The notes beneath the pieces were generated by a model that was not told where the DNA came from, did no database searches, and was given only the letters and a program-made list of their open reading frames with translations. Shown here piece by piece: positions 658-9,942 of a DNA stretch of 64,000 nucleotides. This DNA comes from Dehalobacter restrictus DSM 9455 (GTDB taxonomy: Bacteria; Bacillota; Desulfitobacteriia; Desulfitobacteriales; Syntrophobotulaceae): contig NZ_CP007033.1 of assembly GCF_000512895.1 (NCBI RefSeq), positions 898,001 to 962,000 of the forward strand, written 5' to 3'. A program made the position numbers and the translations under genes. The first letter of the stretch is position 1, and each line of letters opens with the position of its first letter.

Positions 658-869
658 GAGGTAATATATTCCACACAGACCTGCTTTTTTCCTTTAAGCG
701 CTATTGGATACAGTGTATCACATCTGCAATTCTCCGTCAGAATGAAGTGTTTATCAAAAAATAGTTCCGGAATCATAATTTTTAATTATCTAACTCTAGC
801 GAAAACTAGGATTATTCAGTATAATGATATTCATGTGAATTGAATAATTGTTTTTTGTTTTGAAACAGT

Positions 870-945
870 GGGGATGTAGCTCAGCTGGGAGAGCGCTTGC
901 TTCGCATGTAAGAGGTCGTGGGTTCGAATCCCATCATCTCCACCA
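870..945 (+). tRNA. tRNA-Ala (anticodon CGC)
   Basis: A full cloverleaf can be folded. The acceptor stem GGGGATG pairs with CATCTCC (one G-U), a normal D-arm is present, the anticodon loop TTCGCAT gives anticodon CGC, the T-loop is GGTTCGAATCC, and CCA is encoded. A strong hairpin follows directly. It is the last conserved gene before the accessory segment that begins with a serine recombinase. Confidence 0.95.
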
Positions 946-954
946 AGTTAAAAG

Positions 955-1000
955 CTACATTTTCTTGTGAAAAGCGCACAAGAAAATGTAGTTTACTTTA
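955..1000 (+). terminator. Terminator of tRNA-Ala
   Basis: A perfect 15-base-pair stem (955-969 with 977-991) with a seven-base loop is followed by a T-rich stretch. It lies ten bases after the tRNA. Confidence 0.8.
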
Positions 1001-1089
1001 TATATCAGCAATAAAAATATAACTTCGGCATGACGGCTCGTTAACTGTCATGTCTTTTTATTTTGTAAGCATAGAAAGGAGCATTTCAA

Positions 1090-1980
1090 ATGAATAACAA
1101 TATAGTCATTGAAATACCGTCTATCAAAAAAGAAGTTTTACGTGTCGCCGCTTACTGCAGGGTCAGCACAGCTTATGAAGAACAACAAACCAGTCTGGAT
1201 TCACAGATTCGATATTATACAGATTACATCAACAATCATGAGGGCTGGGTACTTGCAGATATCTATTCTGAGCAGGCATCAGGTACGCGCTTTGATAACA
1301 GAACCGCATTCAACCGTATGATGAAAGACTGCCGCGCCGGAAAAATTGATTATATCATTACCAAGTCTATCAGTCGTTTCGGGCGAAACACTCTTCCCTT
1401 TTTACGGAGCTTTAATGAACTCCTTGGTTTAGGTATTACAATTTACTTTGAAATGGAGAGGTTGGATTCGTCTGATTGGCGAATGCGAAAAATCATTACC
1501 GCAGCTGCAGCTGTTGCTCAAAGTGAAAGTGAGTCAAAGAGTGCGAATATCAAGTGGGGAATTCAACGCAGCTTTGAAAAAGGGCATGTCAAGCTGAACC
1601 ATACCAACTTCCTCGGTTACACAAAAGATGAGAATGGCAAATTGGTTATCGTTGAAGAAGAAGCCAAAATAGTCCGGCTCATTTATGATTTATACCTGAA
1701 AGGCTATGGCTACCGCAAGATTAAATCTTACCTTGAAAAGAATGACATAAAAACGGTAACGGGAAAGTCTGAATGGAGCACTTCCACCATTGACCGGATC
1801 CTTTGCAATGAAAAATATATTGGAACTATATTATCCCAAAAGAGCTATGTTGAAAATTGCCTGACTCACAAACAGGTAAAAAACAACGGTGAGTCGCCTA
1901 TGTATCTTATGGAGAATAATCACGAAGCGATTATAAGCAAGGAGGTTTTTGAGGAAGTCCAGCATAGAAAATCCTCGTAA
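1090..1980 (+). CDS. Truncated serine recombinase (large resolvase/invertase family)
   Basis: Residues 18-150 form the resolvase catalytic domain: YCRVS with the nucleophilic serine near residue 26, then QxxSLDSQ, and the KSISRFGRN motif near residue 93. A recombinase domain follows (YRKIKSYLEKNDIKT...STIDRILCNEKYIGT, roughly residues 205-250). Large serine recombinases are usually 450-550 residues with a C-terminal zinc ribbon and coiled coil. Here the frame stops at 296 residues, with a second in-frame stop four codons later, then about 25 more open codons (to about 2080). The zinc-ribbon part is missing, so it is probably an inactive remnant of an integrated element. It has a good AGGAG-like site before the ATG. 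Confidence 0.85.
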   Translation: MNNNIVIEIPSIKKEVLRVAAYCRVSTAYEEQQTSLDSQIRYYTDYINNHEGWVLADIYSEQASGTRFDNRTAFNRMMKDCRAGKIDYIITKSISRFGRNTLPFLRSFNELLGLGITIYFEMERLDSSDWRMRKIITAAAAVAQSESESKSANIKWGIQRSFEKGHVKLNHTNFLGYTKDENGKLVIVEEEAKIVRLIYDLYLKGYGYRKIKSYLEKNDIKTVTGKSEWSTSTIDRILCNEKYIGTILSQKSYVENCLTHKQVKNNGESPMYLMENNHEAIISKEVFEEVQHRKSS

Positions 1981-2186
1981 AGTTTGCATTAGAAGTCAGG
2001 CCCTTATATTAAAAAAACAACTGTACATCATTCTAAATATGGCGAATTTGCCATAATAAGCGGGACAATTAATATTCTGTGAACCATTGAGAGTTTTTGT
2101 CGAATTCTCAACTGATTAACCATTGCATTTGTTCGCACCTACGCATATAATATAATTAGATTATTTTGGAAATTGAGGTGTCTGAC

Positions 2187-2366
2187 GTGGGTGCATACAT
2201 AAGTGTAAAAGATGCCGCTCAAAAATGGGGATTGTCAGACCGACGTGTACAAGTTTTGTGTTCTCAGAAACGAATAGAGGGAGCATTTAGACTGGGCAAT
2301 GCATGGGCAATACCTGTTGATGCAAAAAAACCAGATGATCAGCGAAAAAACTGGAATAAGTACTAA
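2187..2366 (+). CDS. Excisionase-like (MerR-type) helix-turn-helix protein
   Basis: This 59-residue protein has the layout YISVKDAAQKWGLSDRRVQVLCSQKRI...GNAWAIP, a winged HTH typical of excisionase/MerR-like DNA-binding modules. The GTG at 2187 is preferred because GAGGTG lies six bases before it; a TTG at 2166 is the only longer alternative. It is the first gene of the ParB-like/methylase/ATPase operon, with 14 bases to the next start, so it may regulate that operon. The same module appears as the N-terminal domain of the regulator at 9010 and as a decayed copy at 16432. Confidence 0.75.
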   Translation: MGAYISVKDAAQKWGLSDRRVQVLCSQKRIEGAFRLGNAWAIPVDAKKPDDQRKNWNKY

Positions 2367-2380
2367 GGGGAAATTTGGAT

Positions 2381-3043
2381 ATGAGTAATCCGATTTATAA
2401 AAGCATTAATATTACTAATCTATTACTTAATTCCAGTAATCCGCGGTTTAATCCTGTGGAGCATCAATCGGAAGCTATTGACGCTATGGTTCGTGACCAG
2501 CAGGATAAACTAGTTACTCTAGCTAAACATATTGCTCTTTATGGATTAAATCCCAGCGACATTGTTCTTGTGAAACCTCATAACAAACAGTGGGTCGTAC
2601 GTGAGGGAAATCGGCGCATAACGACTTTAAAGCTGATAAATGAGCCGGCTCTGATTCCATCTGATTTTCCTAAACTGAAGAAGGAATTCCAACTAATCAA
2701 TATATCTTTTGACAAAGATATATTGAAGAATATTCAGTGTGTTGTTTTAGAGAATGAAGATGAAATCAATGAATGGGTGCGATTGAAACATACAGGTCAA
2801 AATGAGGGTTCTGGCACTGTGAGTTGGGATGGGCAGCAAACCAGTCGGTTTCGTGTAATTGCTGAAGGAAAGCCAGATATGAGGTTGTCCTTTTTAGATG
2901 AATTACGGCTCATAGCTGATGTTCCTCAATCTATAAAGGATGGGTTAGGAAATATCAAGAAAACCAACTTTGACCGTCTCATAGGAGACCCTGATATCCG
3001 TGAAATTATGGACTTGAGATTAGTGGTGACAAGCTTCAACTAA
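2381..3043 (+). CDS. ParB/Srx-like N-terminal domain protein, 5' fragment of a frameshifted gene
   Basis: Residues 1-90 look like a ParB/sulfiredoxin-fold domain: NPRF near the start, LAKHIALYGLNPSDIVLV, then REGNRRITTLKL, the counterpart of the GERR box of ParB. A segment with RLKHTGQNEGSG...WDGQQTSRF follows. The frame ends at 3043, but reading one base back near 3020 continues as SGDKLQLKNGINPF straight into the next frame (3064-3813). The two pieces are therefore one gene of about 475 codons broken by a single-base deletion or a sequencing error. The ATG at 2381 has a GGGGAAA site before it. It probably binds DNA or nucleotides; catalytic activity is unknown. Confidence 0.7.
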   Translation: MSNPIYKSINITNLLLNSSNPRFNPVEHQSEAIDAMVRDQQDKLVTLAKHIALYGLNPSDIVLVKPHNKQWVVREGNRRITTLKLINEPALIPSDFPKLKKEFQLINISFDKDILKNIQCVVLENEDEINEWVRLKHTGQNEGSGTVSWDGQQTSRFRVIAEGKPDMRLSFLDELRLIADVPQSIKDGLGNIKKTNFDRLIGDPDIREIMDLRLVVTSFN

Positions 3044-3063
3044 AAAATGGGATTAATCCATTT

Positions 3064-3813
3064 TTGCTAATGATACTTTATGACCTGATTTATGAAGACC
3101 TTAGTGTCGGGGATATATATCGAAAAAAAGATCGTATTGAATACATAGAATCGTTAAAACAACGACTCATGCAAGAAAATATGGAATCTTCTGATGAGCA
3201 GATTTCCGAGAATACAAGAGAAGCCAATAACAGTCAAGGTGGAGGTTATAAAGCTTCTAATTCATCCGGCAATAATTATTATAATAATGAAAATACAGAT
3301 AGCAAGCAGCAATCTTCATCTGCTAATCAACAAGCATCCAATGCAAACCATAATTCGAAGAGAGGGGACAGTTATCATATAAACAGGAAAACTCTTATTC
3401 CTTCTCCTCATAAGTTAACTATTACACATGCAAGGATATTAAAAATTTTCAATGAATTAAAAGCTCTTGCAGTAGATGATTACCCTAATGCTGTGTCGGT
3501 GCTTTTTAGAGTGTTTATAGAATTAAGCGTAGATTGTTTTATTACGAATAAAAGCCTCATTGATTCGAGATTAAATGTGGACAGTACTCTGGCGTATAAA
3601 ATAAATGCTGTTGCGGCTTATTTTGAAATAAACAAGATTTTGACAAAGCATGAACTCAGAGCTATACGGCAGATGACCGCAAGTGAAAACCAAACGCAAT
3701 CTATAAGAACATTTCACTCATATATACATAACAAAGACGTGACACCATCTTCGACAGATCTGAAATCTGCTTGGGATGATATATGGACATTCATAGAGCA
3801 GGTTTGGAGGTAA
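3064..3813 (+). CDS. C-terminal part of the ParB-like protein, possible HEPN-like domain
   Basis: This frame continues the preceding ParB-like gene after the frameshift; it has no good start of its own (only TTG) and no ribosome binding site. It begins with a helical stretch, then a low-complexity Asn/Gln/Ser linker (about residues 45-105) that links the ParB part to a compact helical domain of about 130 residues. Near the end is R-T-F-H-S-Y-I-H-N, an R-x6-H arrangement like the catalytic motif of HEPN ribonucleases, followed by PSSTDLKSAWDDIWTF. HEPN assignment is an inference from that motif. The gene ends three bases before the methyltransferase start, so the two are co-transcribed. Confidence 0.55.
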   Translation: MLMILYDLIYEDLSVGDIYRKKDRIEYIESLKQRLMQENMESSDEQISENTREANNSQGGGYKASNSSGNNYYNNENTDSKQQSSSANQQASNANHNSKRGDSYHINRKTLIPSPHKLTITHARILKIFNELKALAVDDYPNAVSVLFRVFIELSVDCFITNKSLIDSRLNVDSTLAYKINAVAAYFEINKILTKHELRAIRQMTASENQTQSIRTFHSYIHNKDVTPSSTDLKSAWDDIWTFIEQVWR

Positions 3814-3816
3814 TTT

Positions 3817-4677
3817 ATGGTGCAGTTTTCTTCGCCATTGCGCTATCCAGGCGGGAAGCGTAAACTGGCTGGATTTGTGAAAGATGCAGTTATTAAGAAT
3901 GATATACAGGGCGGGACCTATGTTGAGCCTTTCGCAGGGGGCGCGAGTGTAGCGCTCTATTTGTTGTTTAATGAGTCTGTAAACCAAATCATAATAAATG
4001 ACATTGACAGATCAATCTATGCATTTTGGTATTGTGTTTTAAACAACACACAGGAATTATGCAGCAGGATTGAACAAACAGCAATAACTATGGTTGAATG
4101 GGAAAATCAAAAAGCTGTTCAGCAAGAAAAAGAACAGGCGGAGTTTTTAGATCTAGCCTTTTCGACGTTTTTTTTGAATAGAACGAATAGATCAGGGATT
4201 ATCAAAGGTGGGGTTATTGGAGGCAAAAACCAAACAGGCGAATGGAAGATGGATGTAAGGTTTAATAAGGACGATCTAATTAAAAGAATCGAAAAAATTG
4301 CTTTATATCGTGATAGAATTTCACTTCATTGCTCAGATTCGATTACTTTCATTGATGAGATTTTACCTGACATTGATGACCATACATTAATATATTTTGA
4401 CCCGCCGTATTACAATCAAGGTTCGGCCTTATATGTAAATCATTATACACATGACAATCATGTTGAATTATCTCGATATATCCAGCGCTTGAACTGCAAA
4501 TGGATGTTGACATATGACTATACTCCCAAAATTATTGAAATGTACCGTGATGTTGAAAAAAGGTTGCTAACATTAAGCTACACCGCATCTCAGAAAGTAA
4601 AAGGCAGTGAAATGCTGGCTTTTAGTAACAATTTTATAATTCCAGAAGGTAAATATTCAGCGATTACGATAGAATAG
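3817..4677 (+). CDS. D12-class DNA adenine N6-methyltransferase (Dam-like)
   Basis: This 286-residue protein has the layout of the Dam/DpnM family. PLRYPGGKRKL near the N-terminus (motif X) and YVEPFAGGASVAL near residue 40 (motif I) bind S-adenosylmethionine. YFDPPYYNQG near residue 195 is motif IV, the catalytic DPPY. The target would be adenine in a short sequence that cannot be predicted here. It starts three bases after the ParB-like gene and 27 bases before the ATPase gene. In that setting it more likely protects host DNA from a partner nuclease than acts as a housekeeping methylase, which is inference. Confidence 0.88.
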   Translation: MVQFSSPLRYPGGKRKLAGFVKDAVIKNDIQGGTYVEPFAGGASVALYLLFNESVNQIIINDIDRSIYAFWYCVLNNTQELCSRIEQTAITMVEWENQKAVQQEKEQAEFLDLAFSTFFLNRTNRSGIIKGGVIGGKNQTGEWKMDVRFNKDDLIKRIEKIALYRDRISLHCSDSITFIDEILPDIDDHTLIYFDPPYYNQGSALYVNHYTHDNHVELSRYIQRLNCKWMLTYDYTPKIIEMYRDVEKRLLTLSYTASQKVKGSEMLAFSNNFIIPEGKYSAITIE

Positions 4678-4704
4678 CTACATTAACAGGGGGATGTAAT
4701 GTAA

Positions 4705-6231
4705 ATGATAAAATCTTTGTATATAGAACAGTTCAGAGCAATGAAAAAATTATCTATCCCCTTAGGGCGAAAAATCACAGTTATTGCTGGACAAAATGCT
4801 ACATGTAAATCTACTTTATTAGGAATGATTGGACAACCCTTTGGTTTAAAAGATGAAAAGACCATTTTTGACAAGCCATTTTCAACTAAGTTCTCCGATA
4901 TCTTTAAGTTCTCAAAAAATAATGACTTACCAGGAGAGCATGAGTATCAAATTGAGTTTTTTGACTCAACTCTTTTTGGTAAGAACCTTGAATATATAAA
5001 ATCCTATAAGCGTGCTCAGCATGATACATCACACATTCGCTTGGTAGTAGGGAAAACGAGAGGGAAAGGTGAGGGGAATTTAGATTATCCGGTAATATAC
5101 TTGGGACTTAAGCGTACATATCCAATTGGGGAATTGCGTGAAATCACTGAGTCAAAACCTACTCTCACTGAATCTGAAATTGAGATATTCAATAAATGGT
5201 ATAAAGAGATATTTTTCCCGCAGGAAAAAATATCTCCGATACAGATAACTTCTAAGTTACAAAAAGATACTTTAGCTGTAAACTCAGAAAAATATGATTA
5301 CTTCGCAAACTCTGCTGGTCAAGATAATATTGGCCAAATTTTAGGTGCAATCATATCCTTTGATCGTCTGAAGGCAAAACTTGGTGATGAATACAAAGGA
5401 GGCATTCTTTTAATCGATGAATTTGATGCAACTTTATTTCCTGCAGCGCAGACAAATCTGGTAGACCTGTTTTATAAGCTTGCGGGGAAATATAATTTGC
5501 AATTTGTATTTACAACACATTCTTTGGACACCTTAGAACATATTATTGATAAAAGACAGCATAATAATAGTGATACAGAGGTGCTGTATTTTACCAATGT
5601 CTATGGAAAGCTAGATTTAATAGTAGCGCCTCAAATGCAACGCATTAGGAGCGATTTGAATATGGCTACTATTTCCCGCTCACCGCTTCAAAAAATAAAT
5701 TTGTATTGTGAAGATGCGGAAGCTTCTTGGTTTATTAAAAGAATACTTGGGCCTCAAAAAACAAAGTATCTTAATTTTTGTGCTGCGACATTTGGCGGCG
5801 ATTTTTTAAGTTCTCTTGCAGAGAAGAATATCTCGGAATTTAATAGCAGTATTATAGTCCTGGATGGTGATAAGAAACCTTCAAAAGCGGCGTCCAATGT
5901 TTTATGTTTGCCTGGTAATGCTAATCCTGAAAATGTTTTTCGTCAGTTGTTGGAGGATATGCCTCCTGATCATGTTTTTTGGCAAAATGATTTAAGATAT
6001 ACAAAGCAAGTATTCGAAAAAGAACTATCAAAACAGACAAATGGGCGCTACGATGATAGGAACAAGATGAAAGCTTGGTTTAATAATCAAAAAAAGTTTT
6101 GGGGACGAGGAGGAAGCAATATTTTCAAGTGCTGGTTGGATCATCATCCTGAACAAGCAGAAGATTTTCGTATCCGATTTGTTCGAGTATACAATGAAAT
6201 AGCAAAAAGACGGTCCATACCTACCATCTGA
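4705..6231 (+). CDS. OLD-like ATPase with TOPRIM-like C-terminal domain
   Basis: The N-terminal half is an ABC/RecF-type ATPase: P-loop GQNATCKST (residues 29-37), a degenerate signature SAGQDNIGQ, Walker B GILLIDEFDATLFP and a histidine switch TTHS. From about residue 345, LYCEDAEASWFIKRIL followed by IIVLDGDKK matches the acidic E...DxD layout of TOPRIM nuclease domains in OLD family proteins. The P-loop has cysteine where glycine normally precedes the lysine. Length (508 residues) is normal for OLD proteins. Proteins of this class act in phage defence (for example GajA). It is the last gene of the operon and a terminator follows. Confidence 0.75.
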   Translation: MIKSLYIEQFRAMKKLSIPLGRKITVIAGQNATCKSTLLGMIGQPFGLKDEKTIFDKPFSTKFSDIFKFSKNNDLPGEHEYQIEFFDSTLFGKNLEYIKSYKRAQHDTSHIRLVVGKTRGKGEGNLDYPVIYLGLKRTYPIGELREITESKPTLTESEIEIFNKWYKEIFFPQEKISPIQITSKLQKDTLAVNSEKYDYFANSAGQDNIGQILGAIISFDRLKAKLGDEYKGGILLIDEFDATLFPAAQTNLVDLFYKLAGKYNLQFVFTTHSLDTLEHIIDKRQHNNSDTEVLYFTNVYGKLDLIVAPQMQRIRSDLNMATISRSPLQKINLYCEDAEASWFIKRILGPQKTKYLNFCAATFGGDFLSSLAEKNISEFNSSIIVLDGDKKPSKAASNVLCLPGNANPENVFRQLLEDMPPDHVFWQNDLRYTKQVFEKELSKQTNGRYDDRNKMKAWFNNQKKFWGRGGSNIFKCWLDHHPEQAEDFRIRFVRVYNEIAKRRSIPTI

Positions 6232-6294
6232 ATGATGTCTATCATTCAGTAATATGACATCTTTCATTACCAAACTTCTCAAAATTTTTCCGAG

Positions 6295-6327
6295 AACCCG
6301 CTATTCATGCGGGTTTGATGTTTTTTT
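6295..6327 (+). terminator. Terminator of the methylase/ATPase operon
   Basis: Seven-base-pair stem AACCCGC/GCGGGTT with a seven-base loop, then GATG and a run of seven T. A second small hairpin (6331-6345) with a T-rich tail follows just before the IS66 end. Confidence 0.75.
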
Positions 6328-9009: not shown

Positions 9010-9942
9010 ATGGACTACATGACAGTTCGGGAAGCTGCGGAAAAGTGGGGAGTATCTGTAAGACGTGTGCAATATCTATGCAAACAGGATATGATAGCAG
9101 GAGCTGTCCAGTTTGGCAAGGTCTGGACCATTCCCAACGACACTGCCAAACCAAGAGATGGCAGATATAAAGTAATGGAAGAAAGTCCAAAGGACATTGG
9201 CCGTCCTTTTCAATCCTGGGGTGGAAATGAAGAGATGCTTTCAAGGATTATAGAATTTTTTCCTTATCCGATTCAAGTTTATTCACCGAACGGGACGATG
9301 GTTTTAACTAACGAAGCATCATTAAGGCTAATGCATATACCCTCGAAAGATCATTTAATCGGAAAATTTAATGTATTGAAAGATCCAGTTATCGACAAAT
9401 GGGAAGAACGAGCAAGAGAACAAATATTAAAGTCATTTCAAGGTGAAACCGTACAATTTCAAGATTTAGAAATGCCAATTCAAGAAATTATTAATCGATT
9501 TGAGGTAGGCGAGCTTTGCTTTGACATGAGCTTCCAAAACATCACTTGTTTTCCTATTTTTGATGATCATAATCGACTGGCCTATGTCGTCCATGTCTTT
9601 GTTACATCCAAGCTGTATAATGGTAAAGAAGAAATGGTTAAAGCGAAGGTATATATAGAAAGTCATTGGCTGGAAGAATTTGATCTGGACAAGGCGGCAA
9701 GGTCGGTAAATCTGAGTCGATATCACTTTTCCCGTCTTTTCAAAAGGTATACTTCCATGACTCCCTTCAGCTATTATCAGGACGTTAAAATAAATAAGCT
9801 GAAGGAGAAGCTTTGCGATCAGAATCTATCTATTGGCGAAGCTTTTTCTGCCTGCGGTTTGAATTACAATGGAAATTACGCCAGGGTGTTCAAGGAAAAG
9901 GTAGGAATGACACCATCACAATACCGAAAAACACTTGGATAA
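9010..9942 (+). CDS. AraC-family regulator with N-terminal excisionase-like HTH and a PAS-like domain
   Basis: Three parts are visible in 310 residues. Residues 1-55 form a MerR/excisionase-type HTH (MTVREAAEKWGVSVRRVQYLC...GKVWTIP). Residues 75-205 resemble a PAS sensor (FFPYPIQVYSPNGTMVLTNEASLRL...CFPIFDDHNRLAYVVHVFV). Residues 210-308 form an AraC/XylS DNA-binding domain with two HTH motifs (FDLDKAARSVNLSRYHFSRLFKRY and LSIGEAFSACGLNYNGNYARVFKEKVGMTPSQYR). Two separate DNA-binding modules on one chain are unusual. The AGAGGACG site before the ATG is good. Ligand and targets are unknown; the adjacent PAS-only gene and lipoproteins are plausible targets. Confidence 0.8.
   Translation: MDYMTVREAAEKWGVSVRRVQYLCKQDMIAGAVQFGKVWTIPNDTAKPRDGRYKVMEESPKDIGRPFQSWGGNEEMLSRIIEFFPYPIQVYSPNGTMVLTNEASLRLMHIPSKDHLIGKFNVLKDPVIDKWEERAREQILKSFQGETVQFQDLEMPIQEIINRFEVGELCFDMSFQNITCFPIFDDHNRLAYVVHVFVTSKLYNGKEEMVKAKVYIESHWLEEFDLDKAARSVNLSRYHFSRLFKRYTSMTPFSYYQDVKINKLKEKLCDQNLSIGEAFSACGLNYNGNYARVFKEKVGMTPSQYRKTLG

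What the first reader, a model, noticed from the sequence alone, without database searches (positions are those of the whole stretch)
2187..6231. Candidate new defence-type operon: HTH + ParB-like/HEPN-like + Dam methyltransferase + OLD-like ATPase/TOPRIM
Four tightly packed genes (gaps 14, 3 and 27 bases, one terminator) pair a D12 adenine methyltransferase with a predicted nuclease-bearing OLD ATPase and a ParB/Srx-fold protein carrying a possible HEPN RNase domain. They lie between a truncated serine recombinase and an IS66 element, a typical defence-island setting. I know of no described system with exactly this set, but I cannot search. A methylation-guided or abortive-infection role is inference.
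Basis: partly seen in the sequence, partly recalled or inferred. Interest (0 to 1): 0.75.

Follow-up and report, generated by a model that had tools for sequence, protein, structure and literature searches.

The report
Methylase-linked OLD ATPase beside PD-λ-5
A small bacterial antivirus operon combines a known two-gene defence (PD-λ-5, here with its first gene broken by a one-base frameshift) with an ATP-driven, probably nucleic-acid-cutting protein whose relatives nearly always sit beside a DNA-methylating enzyme, which points to a widespread and apparently unnamed methylation-coupled immunity module.

Summary
The genes are real: HTH, ParB/Srx-HEPN ("A"), D12 adenine methylase ("B") and OLD-like ATPase ("C"), co-directional at 2187-6231. 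A and B match a named system, PD-λ-5 (PADLOC E 1e-79/3e-66 and 3e-122). The window's A is frameshifted near 3010 but intact in two close relatives. C is not part of published PD-λ-5. C relatives lie within 4.5 kb of a D12 methylase in 138 of 150 usable loci, against 1 of 24 other OLD-like ATPase loci. A+B+C recurs in 35 loci, in several gene orders, with at least 12 gains or losses on the C tree. A supported C subclade without D12 partners includes members inside type I RM operons or beside cytosine methylases. A-B trees agree (r 0.71), B-C agree (0.43; 0.66 without A), A-C barely (0.17): the methylase is the hub. Best reading: PD-λ-5 joined to a methylase-coupled OLD ATPase that acts when modification fails or is evaded; this mechanism is inferred. 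No paper found describes the methylase-OLD pair. The HTH occurs only in the closest relatives.

The parts
870..945 (+). tRNA-Ala (CGC), left edge of the region shared with L008
   Evidence: ARAGORN; shared segment begins at 855
1090..1980 (+). truncated serine recombinase, probable relic of the island's integrase
   Evidence: Pfam Resolvase + Recombinase; CcrB-like over its first ~280 of 542 positions; further deleted in L008
2187..2366 (+). small HTH_17 protein (local regulator or excisionase-like)
   Evidence: HTH_17 E 1e-5; phrog excisionase E 8e-7; conserved only in L008, L009, L222
2381..3043 (+). A, N-terminal part: ParB/Srx domain (PD-λ-5_A)
   Evidence: PADLOC PD-Lambda-5_A E 1e-79; ParB fold Z 10.3 on the intact relative L008
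3034..3813 (+). A, C-terminal part: linker plus HEPN domain, out of frame with the first part
   Evidence: PADLOC E 3e-66; HEPN Z 8.1; one-base frameshift near 3010 against L008 and L009
3817..4677 (+). B: D12 (Dam-type) N6-adenine DNA methyltransferase, PD-λ-5_B
   Evidence: PADLOC PD-Lambda-5_B E 2.8e-122; PF02086 E 9.5e-23; the only PF02086 gene in the genome
4705..6231 (+). C: OLD-type ABC ATPase with probable TOPRIM nuclease domain
   Evidence: phrog_3940 E 3e-124; AAA_15; model pLDDT 89; Foldseek top match OLD nuclease 6p74; catalytic residues invariant in 46 relatives
6294..6316 (+). terminator-like hairpin followed by T-rich sequence

Best explanation
The operon is a PD-λ-5-type module (A = ParB/Srx-HEPN effector, B = adenine methylase) joined to a methylase-coupled OLD-type ATPase-nuclease (C). 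Proposed working: B marks the host's DNA. C is held inactive while its partner modification system is intact and the DNA is marked, and is unleashed through its ATPase when the mark is missing or the modification enzyme is inhibited (unmodified phage DNA or an anti-restriction protein). It then cleaves nucleic acid through its TOPRIM-like domain, as a guard or back-up in the style of PrrC or PARIS. A is a second effector hung on the same methylase. In this genome A is frameshifted, so the working part is most likely B+C; the two halves of A might still be made separately. Shown here: gene identities, recurrence, co-inheritance, partner exchange, conserved catalytic residues. Inferred: activity, trigger, target and the guard logic.
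For: C lies near a D12 methylase in 63/74 genome and 75/76 viral-contig loci, against 1/24 other OLD-like ATPase loci; 114 of 133 full-length pairs are within 100 bases. B and C trees correlate (r 0.66 without A, 0.43 with A; 0 of 2000 permutations as high). A+B+C recurs in 35 loci and needs at least 12 changes on the C tree. C without a D12 partner is mostly one supported clade; it holds members inside type I RM operons (L018 hsdM-hsdS-C-hsdR; also L031, L084) and beside cytosine methylases (L059, with NgoPII; L029); the closely similar L065 and L066 add NgoPII examples. C therefore joins complete RM systems that already have a nuclease, which favours a guard over a plain restriction enzyme. 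PrrC is likewise embedded in a type IC RM operon (PMC3874165) and PARIS senses an anti-restriction protein (PMC9122126). The only gene families common around the pairs were two phage-like clusters. PD-λ-5 defends E. coli and was cloned in a host lacking the mrr region (PMC9519451).
Against: No biochemical data. In most B-C pairs no separate restriction enzyme is seen, so C itself could be the restriction nuclease. The TOPRIM assignment is not confirmed by sequence search. Type I and cytosine-methylase cases are few (three and four loci). Some C loci (e.g. L011, L041, L082) have no methylase within about 4 kb. A-C tree agreement is weak (r 0.17), so A and C need not interact.
Confidence: 0.5

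Rival explanations
1. C is itself the restriction nuclease of a minimal RM system: B methylates a site and C cuts DNA lacking that methylation; A is an optional second nuclease or abortive-infection arm.
For: Most B-C pairs show no recurrent separate nuclease; B and C co-evolve (r 0.66); OLD-family proteins are DNA nucleases (PMC10568477).
Against: C also occurs inside complete type I and NgoPII RM operons that have their own nuclease. No target-recognition domain was recognised in C.
Confidence: 0.3
2. Two independent defences sharing an island: PD-λ-5 (A+B) and a solitary OLD-like gene that merely landed beside it.
For: A-C trees hardly agree (r 0.17); gene order varies widely; C is sometimes without a nearby methylase.
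Against: 138/150 loci have C near a D12 methylase against 1/24 controls; B-C tree correlation; B-C pairs exist without A in prophages.
Confidence: 0.13
3. A decaying island: recombinase truncated, A frameshifted, whole operon on its way out and not functional here.
For: A frameshift; recombinase remnant; in the related locus L222 A is also broken, by a stop and an IS3-like insertion.
Against: B and C have intact reading frames and catalytic residues and low dN/dS; B and C are also intact in L222.
Confidence: 0.07

Closest known systems
PD-λ-5 (Vassallo et al. 2022, PMC9519451)
   Same: A and B match its two components and are adjacent, in one operon.
   Different: Window A is frameshifted; a third gene (OLD-like ATPase) is added; it lies in a Bacillota tRNA-Ala island, not an E. 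coli prophage.
OLD-family ATPase-nucleases, classes 1-5 (single genes, Gabija, retron, PARIS, Cran1)
   Same: Predicted fold of C: Foldseek top matches are OLD nuclease 6p74, GajA and Retron-Eco8.
   Different: None of the five published contexts (PMC12796447, PMC10568477) is a DNA methylase; no GajB helicase, reverse transcriptase or AriB was seen beside C.
PrrC/EcoprrI and PARIS
   Same: An ATPase-nuclease tied to restriction-modification; in L018 C sits in a type I RM operon between hsdS and hsdR, the place I recall for PrrC.
   Different: C has a TOPRIM-like rather than HEPN C-terminus (unlike PrrC) and no separate or DUF4435-type AriB (unlike PARIS).
HEC-04 / IbfA (ABC ATPase-TOPRIM)
   Same: Same general ATPase + TOPRIM architecture; the HEC-04 profile aligns to residues 126-421 of C.
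   Different: Only 57 bits against 417 bits for phrog_3940; described as embedded in Hma systems, not paired with a D12 methylase (PMC12111858).
HEPN-ParB-methylase neighbourhoods listed by Anantharaman et al. 2013 (PMC3710099)
   Same: ParB-HEPN fusions and HEPN + ParB + methylase operons were already noted.
   Different: The passages I read do not mention an accompanying OLD-like ATPase.

Membership tests
PD-λ-5 | A component matching the PD-Lambda-5_A profile | tested here: met
   Two parts, E 1e-79 and 3e-66; intact relative L008 E 2e-148
PD-λ-5 | A as one intact reading frame | tested here: not met
   One-base frameshift near 3010; intact in L008 and L009
PD-λ-5 | Adjacent methylase matching PD-Lambda-5_B | tested here: met
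   E 2.8e-122; but this profile also hits the methylase of an A-less B-C pair (L089, E 2e-119), so it is not specific
PD-λ-5 | Protects against phage | not testable with these tools
   Shown for the E. coli system only (PMC9519451)
OLD family | OLD-type ABC ATPase domain with Walker A/B, signature and H-loop | tested here: met
   K35, S203/G205, D238/E239, H272 invariant in 46 relatives; Foldseek top match 6p74. The Walker A reads GQNATCKS, without the usual second glycine
OLD family | C-terminal TOPRIM nuclease | tested here: inconclusive
   E336, D387, D389 invariant and long Foldseek alignments, but no sequence-profile support
Gabija (class 2 OLD) | Adjacent GajB UvrD-like helicase | tested here: not met
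   No such gene in the operon
PARIS (class 4 OLD) | AriB/DUF4435 TOPRIM partner | tested here: not met
   C scores only 58 bits to AriA; no DUF4435 match in C and no AriB gene in the operon
Retron OLD effector (class 3) | Adjacent reverse transcriptase and ncRNA | tested here: inconclusive
   No reverse transcriptase among the operon proteins; the non-coding RNA was not searched for
Type II restriction-modification | Methylase plus a recognised restriction endonuclease | tested here: inconclusive
   Methylase present; no known restriction-endonuclease family matched in the operon

The most novel reading that the evidence does not exclude
C defines a new context class of OLD-family ATPase: a modification-coupled guard that pairs with chemically different DNA methylation systems (D12 adenine, C5-cytosine and type I RM) and triggers nucleic-acid cleavage when modification is evaded or inhibited, a TOPRIM analogue of PrrC.
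Probability: 0.35. Interest if true: 0.75.

Novelty: new variant of a known kind. Interest (0 to 1): 0.6.

Why it matters
It ties a known but mechanistically open defence (PD-λ-5) to a widespread methylase-OLD pair, common in prophages, that the 2023 PADLOC library does not name. Recurrence of one ATPase family with three kinds of DNA modification makes a specific idea testable: that OLD-type nucleases can guard modification systems.

Tried and rejected
HTH as a core member: rejected, only in close relatives. Chance ORFs: rejected (dN/dS). Gabija and PARIS membership: rejected on missing partners. C as HEC-04 or NsnB: profile scores far below phrog_3940. Confirming TOPRIM by sequence (PDB profile, Pfam, comparison with P2 Old): nothing found. 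Single-protein viral-contig scans with P0005, L008-A and L221-A found no relatives; an over-diverse A alignment could not be used; a narrower one gave 10 loci, not analysed further. Surveying A in other phyla was not possible because the search centre must be a genome handle. A duplicate of the tRNA-Ala 3' end as the island's right edge: not found in the window. Eight paper searches found no description of the methylase-OLD pair; no preprints are held, and the 2020 ABC-ATPase survey that might list it is not in the library. More frequent breakage of A than of B or C (4/38 against 5/314, p 0.01) is suggestive only: it was post hoc and includes the window.

Full report
OBSERVATION. The window (in a 2,943,336-base single-contig genome) holds, on the + strand, an HTH_17 gene (2187-2366), a ParB/Srx-HEPN gene in two frames (A; 2381-3043 and 3034-3813), a D12 adenine methylase (B; 3817-4677) and an OLD-type ATPase (C; 4705-6231), with intergenic gaps of 14, 3 and 27 bases and a terminator-like hairpin at 6294-6316. 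It lies between tRNA-Ala (870-945) plus a truncated serine recombinase and an IS66 element.

A IS BROKEN HERE. Compared with the two closest intact copies (L008 and L009; A is one reading frame in each), the window has a one-base frameshift near 3010. The break falls in the region between the ParB/Srx and HEPN parts, so two separate polypeptides cannot be excluded; in Vibrio phage ValB1MD-2 (L002) A is also two overlapping genes. In another genome of the same phylum (L222) A has a stop and an IS3-like insertion while B and C are intact. Purifying selection is visible on every part, including both halves of A (dN/dS 0.06-0.23), so the window's frameshift is probably recent. A sequencing error cannot be ruled out.

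IDENTITY. A and B match PD-λ-5 A and B (PADLOC). PD-λ-5 protects E. coli against most phages tested; [quoted passage not shown] AlphaFold models: A (intact L008 copy, pLDDT 80) matches ParB (Z 10.3, 2.0 Å over 95 residues), sulfiredoxin (Z 8.4) and, in its last 130 residues, HEPN proteins (Z 8.1 to 3o10 and MntA-HepT). C (pLDDT 89) has Foldseek top match OLD nuclease 6p74, with GajA and Retron-Eco8 close behind; its ATPase head aligns to SMC and PtuA heads at Z 15-18. Walker A lysine, signature, Walker B, H-loop and a TOPRIM-like E...DxD set are invariant in 46 relatives. The TOPRIM assignment is otherwise unconfirmed by sequence.

RECURRENCE. Scans with a C alignment gave 80 genome and 80 viral-contig loci. 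Among usable loci (flanks long enough, or B seen), a D12 methylase lies within 4.5 kb of C in 63/74 and 75/76, and A as well in 30 and 5. Orders differ: A-B-C 15, C-A-B 11, A-C-B 3, convergent C/B-A 3, and others. As a control, 24 loci of other OLD-like or ABC ATPases from Bacillota, taken from the weaker phrog_3940 hits, have one D12 methylase. The host genome has a single D12 methylase, this one. L008 shares the tRNA-Ala, recombinase remnant and operon with the window (window 855-6281) but has other genes on both sides, which suggests a mobile island.

WHO GOES WITH WHOM. On 33 A+B+C loci, tree distances correlate A-B 0.71, B-C 0.43, A-C 0.17; on 69 non-redundant B-C loci without A, B-C 0.66. 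On the C tree the A+B+C label needs 16 changes, at least 12 forced by supported branches. The methylase is the hub to which A and C attach separately. Around the pairs no other gene family recurs widely except two phage-like clusters, which by inspection look like repressor and integrase genes.

PARTNER EXCHANGE. Most C relatives lacking a D12 methylase form one supported clade (11 rows, support 99). In it C lies in type I RM operons (L018 hsdM-hsdS-C-hsdR; L031 hsdS...C-hsdR; L084 hsdR-C-hsdS...hsdM) and beside C5-cytosine methylases (L029; L059 with NgoPII). The closely similar L065 and L066, not in the reduced tree, also carry cytosine methylase + NgoPII + C. Several members have no methylase within about 4 kb (e.g. 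L011, L041, L069, L082), and L056 is near an EH_Signature protein. These are small numbers.

MECHANISM. C's presence inside complete RM systems argues that it is not simply their restriction enzyme. PrrC, a latent nuclease embedded in a type IC RM operon and released on phage infection (PMC3874165), and PARIS, which senses an anti-restriction protein (PMC9122126), are the nearest models. The exact place of PrrC between hsdS and hsdR is from memory. For two-gene B-C modules, C as the restriction nuclease is a strong rival. Nothing here measures activity, trigger or target.

KNOWN OR NEW. A+B is known. The passages I read on OLD classes 1-5 (PMC10568477, PMC12796447) give no methylase-paired class, and eight paper searches found no description of the pair. 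Preprints and some surveys are not held, so this is absence of evidence. The PADLOC B profile also hits the methylase of an A-less B-C pair (L089), so by itself it would not separate these from PD-λ-5.

CAVEATS. The loci are selected by similarity to C and by a few conserved motifs, so frequencies are not population estimates; near-identical phage contigs are included in the 76, though the B-C test and the tree are reduced to non-redundant sets. The control loci come from one phylum only. A few loci with truncated methylases are labelled 'none/other' in the tree, which can only blur the grouping. The A breakage comparison is post hoc. The organism was not established; from memory the genome length resembles Dehalobacter restrictus.

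Noticed in passing
window 855-6281 and L008 4688-9580: The tRNA-Ala, serine recombinase remnant and operon are shared with a Clostridia MAG that has other genes on both sides, suggesting a mobile island at tRNA-Ala whose recombinase has decayed, more so in L008.
   Followed up: partly
L222 5074-8099: In another Bacillota genome A carries a stop and an IS3-like insertion while B and C are intact: repeated loss of A beside a kept B-C pair.
   Followed up: partly
L248 1-3284: A Vibrio phage carries a PD-λ-5 A-like gene next to a gene annotated as a type II restriction enzyme, with no D12 methylase listed beside it.
   Followed up: no
L250 228-3266: A P2-type phage has a ParB-like gene, an unknown gene and a BspRI-type cytosine methylase at one end of its genome, another ParB-methylase combination.
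   Followed up: no
window 9010-9942: An AraC-type regulator begins with an N-terminus resembling the operon's small HTH protein (hit at E 3.8e-13).
   Followed up: no
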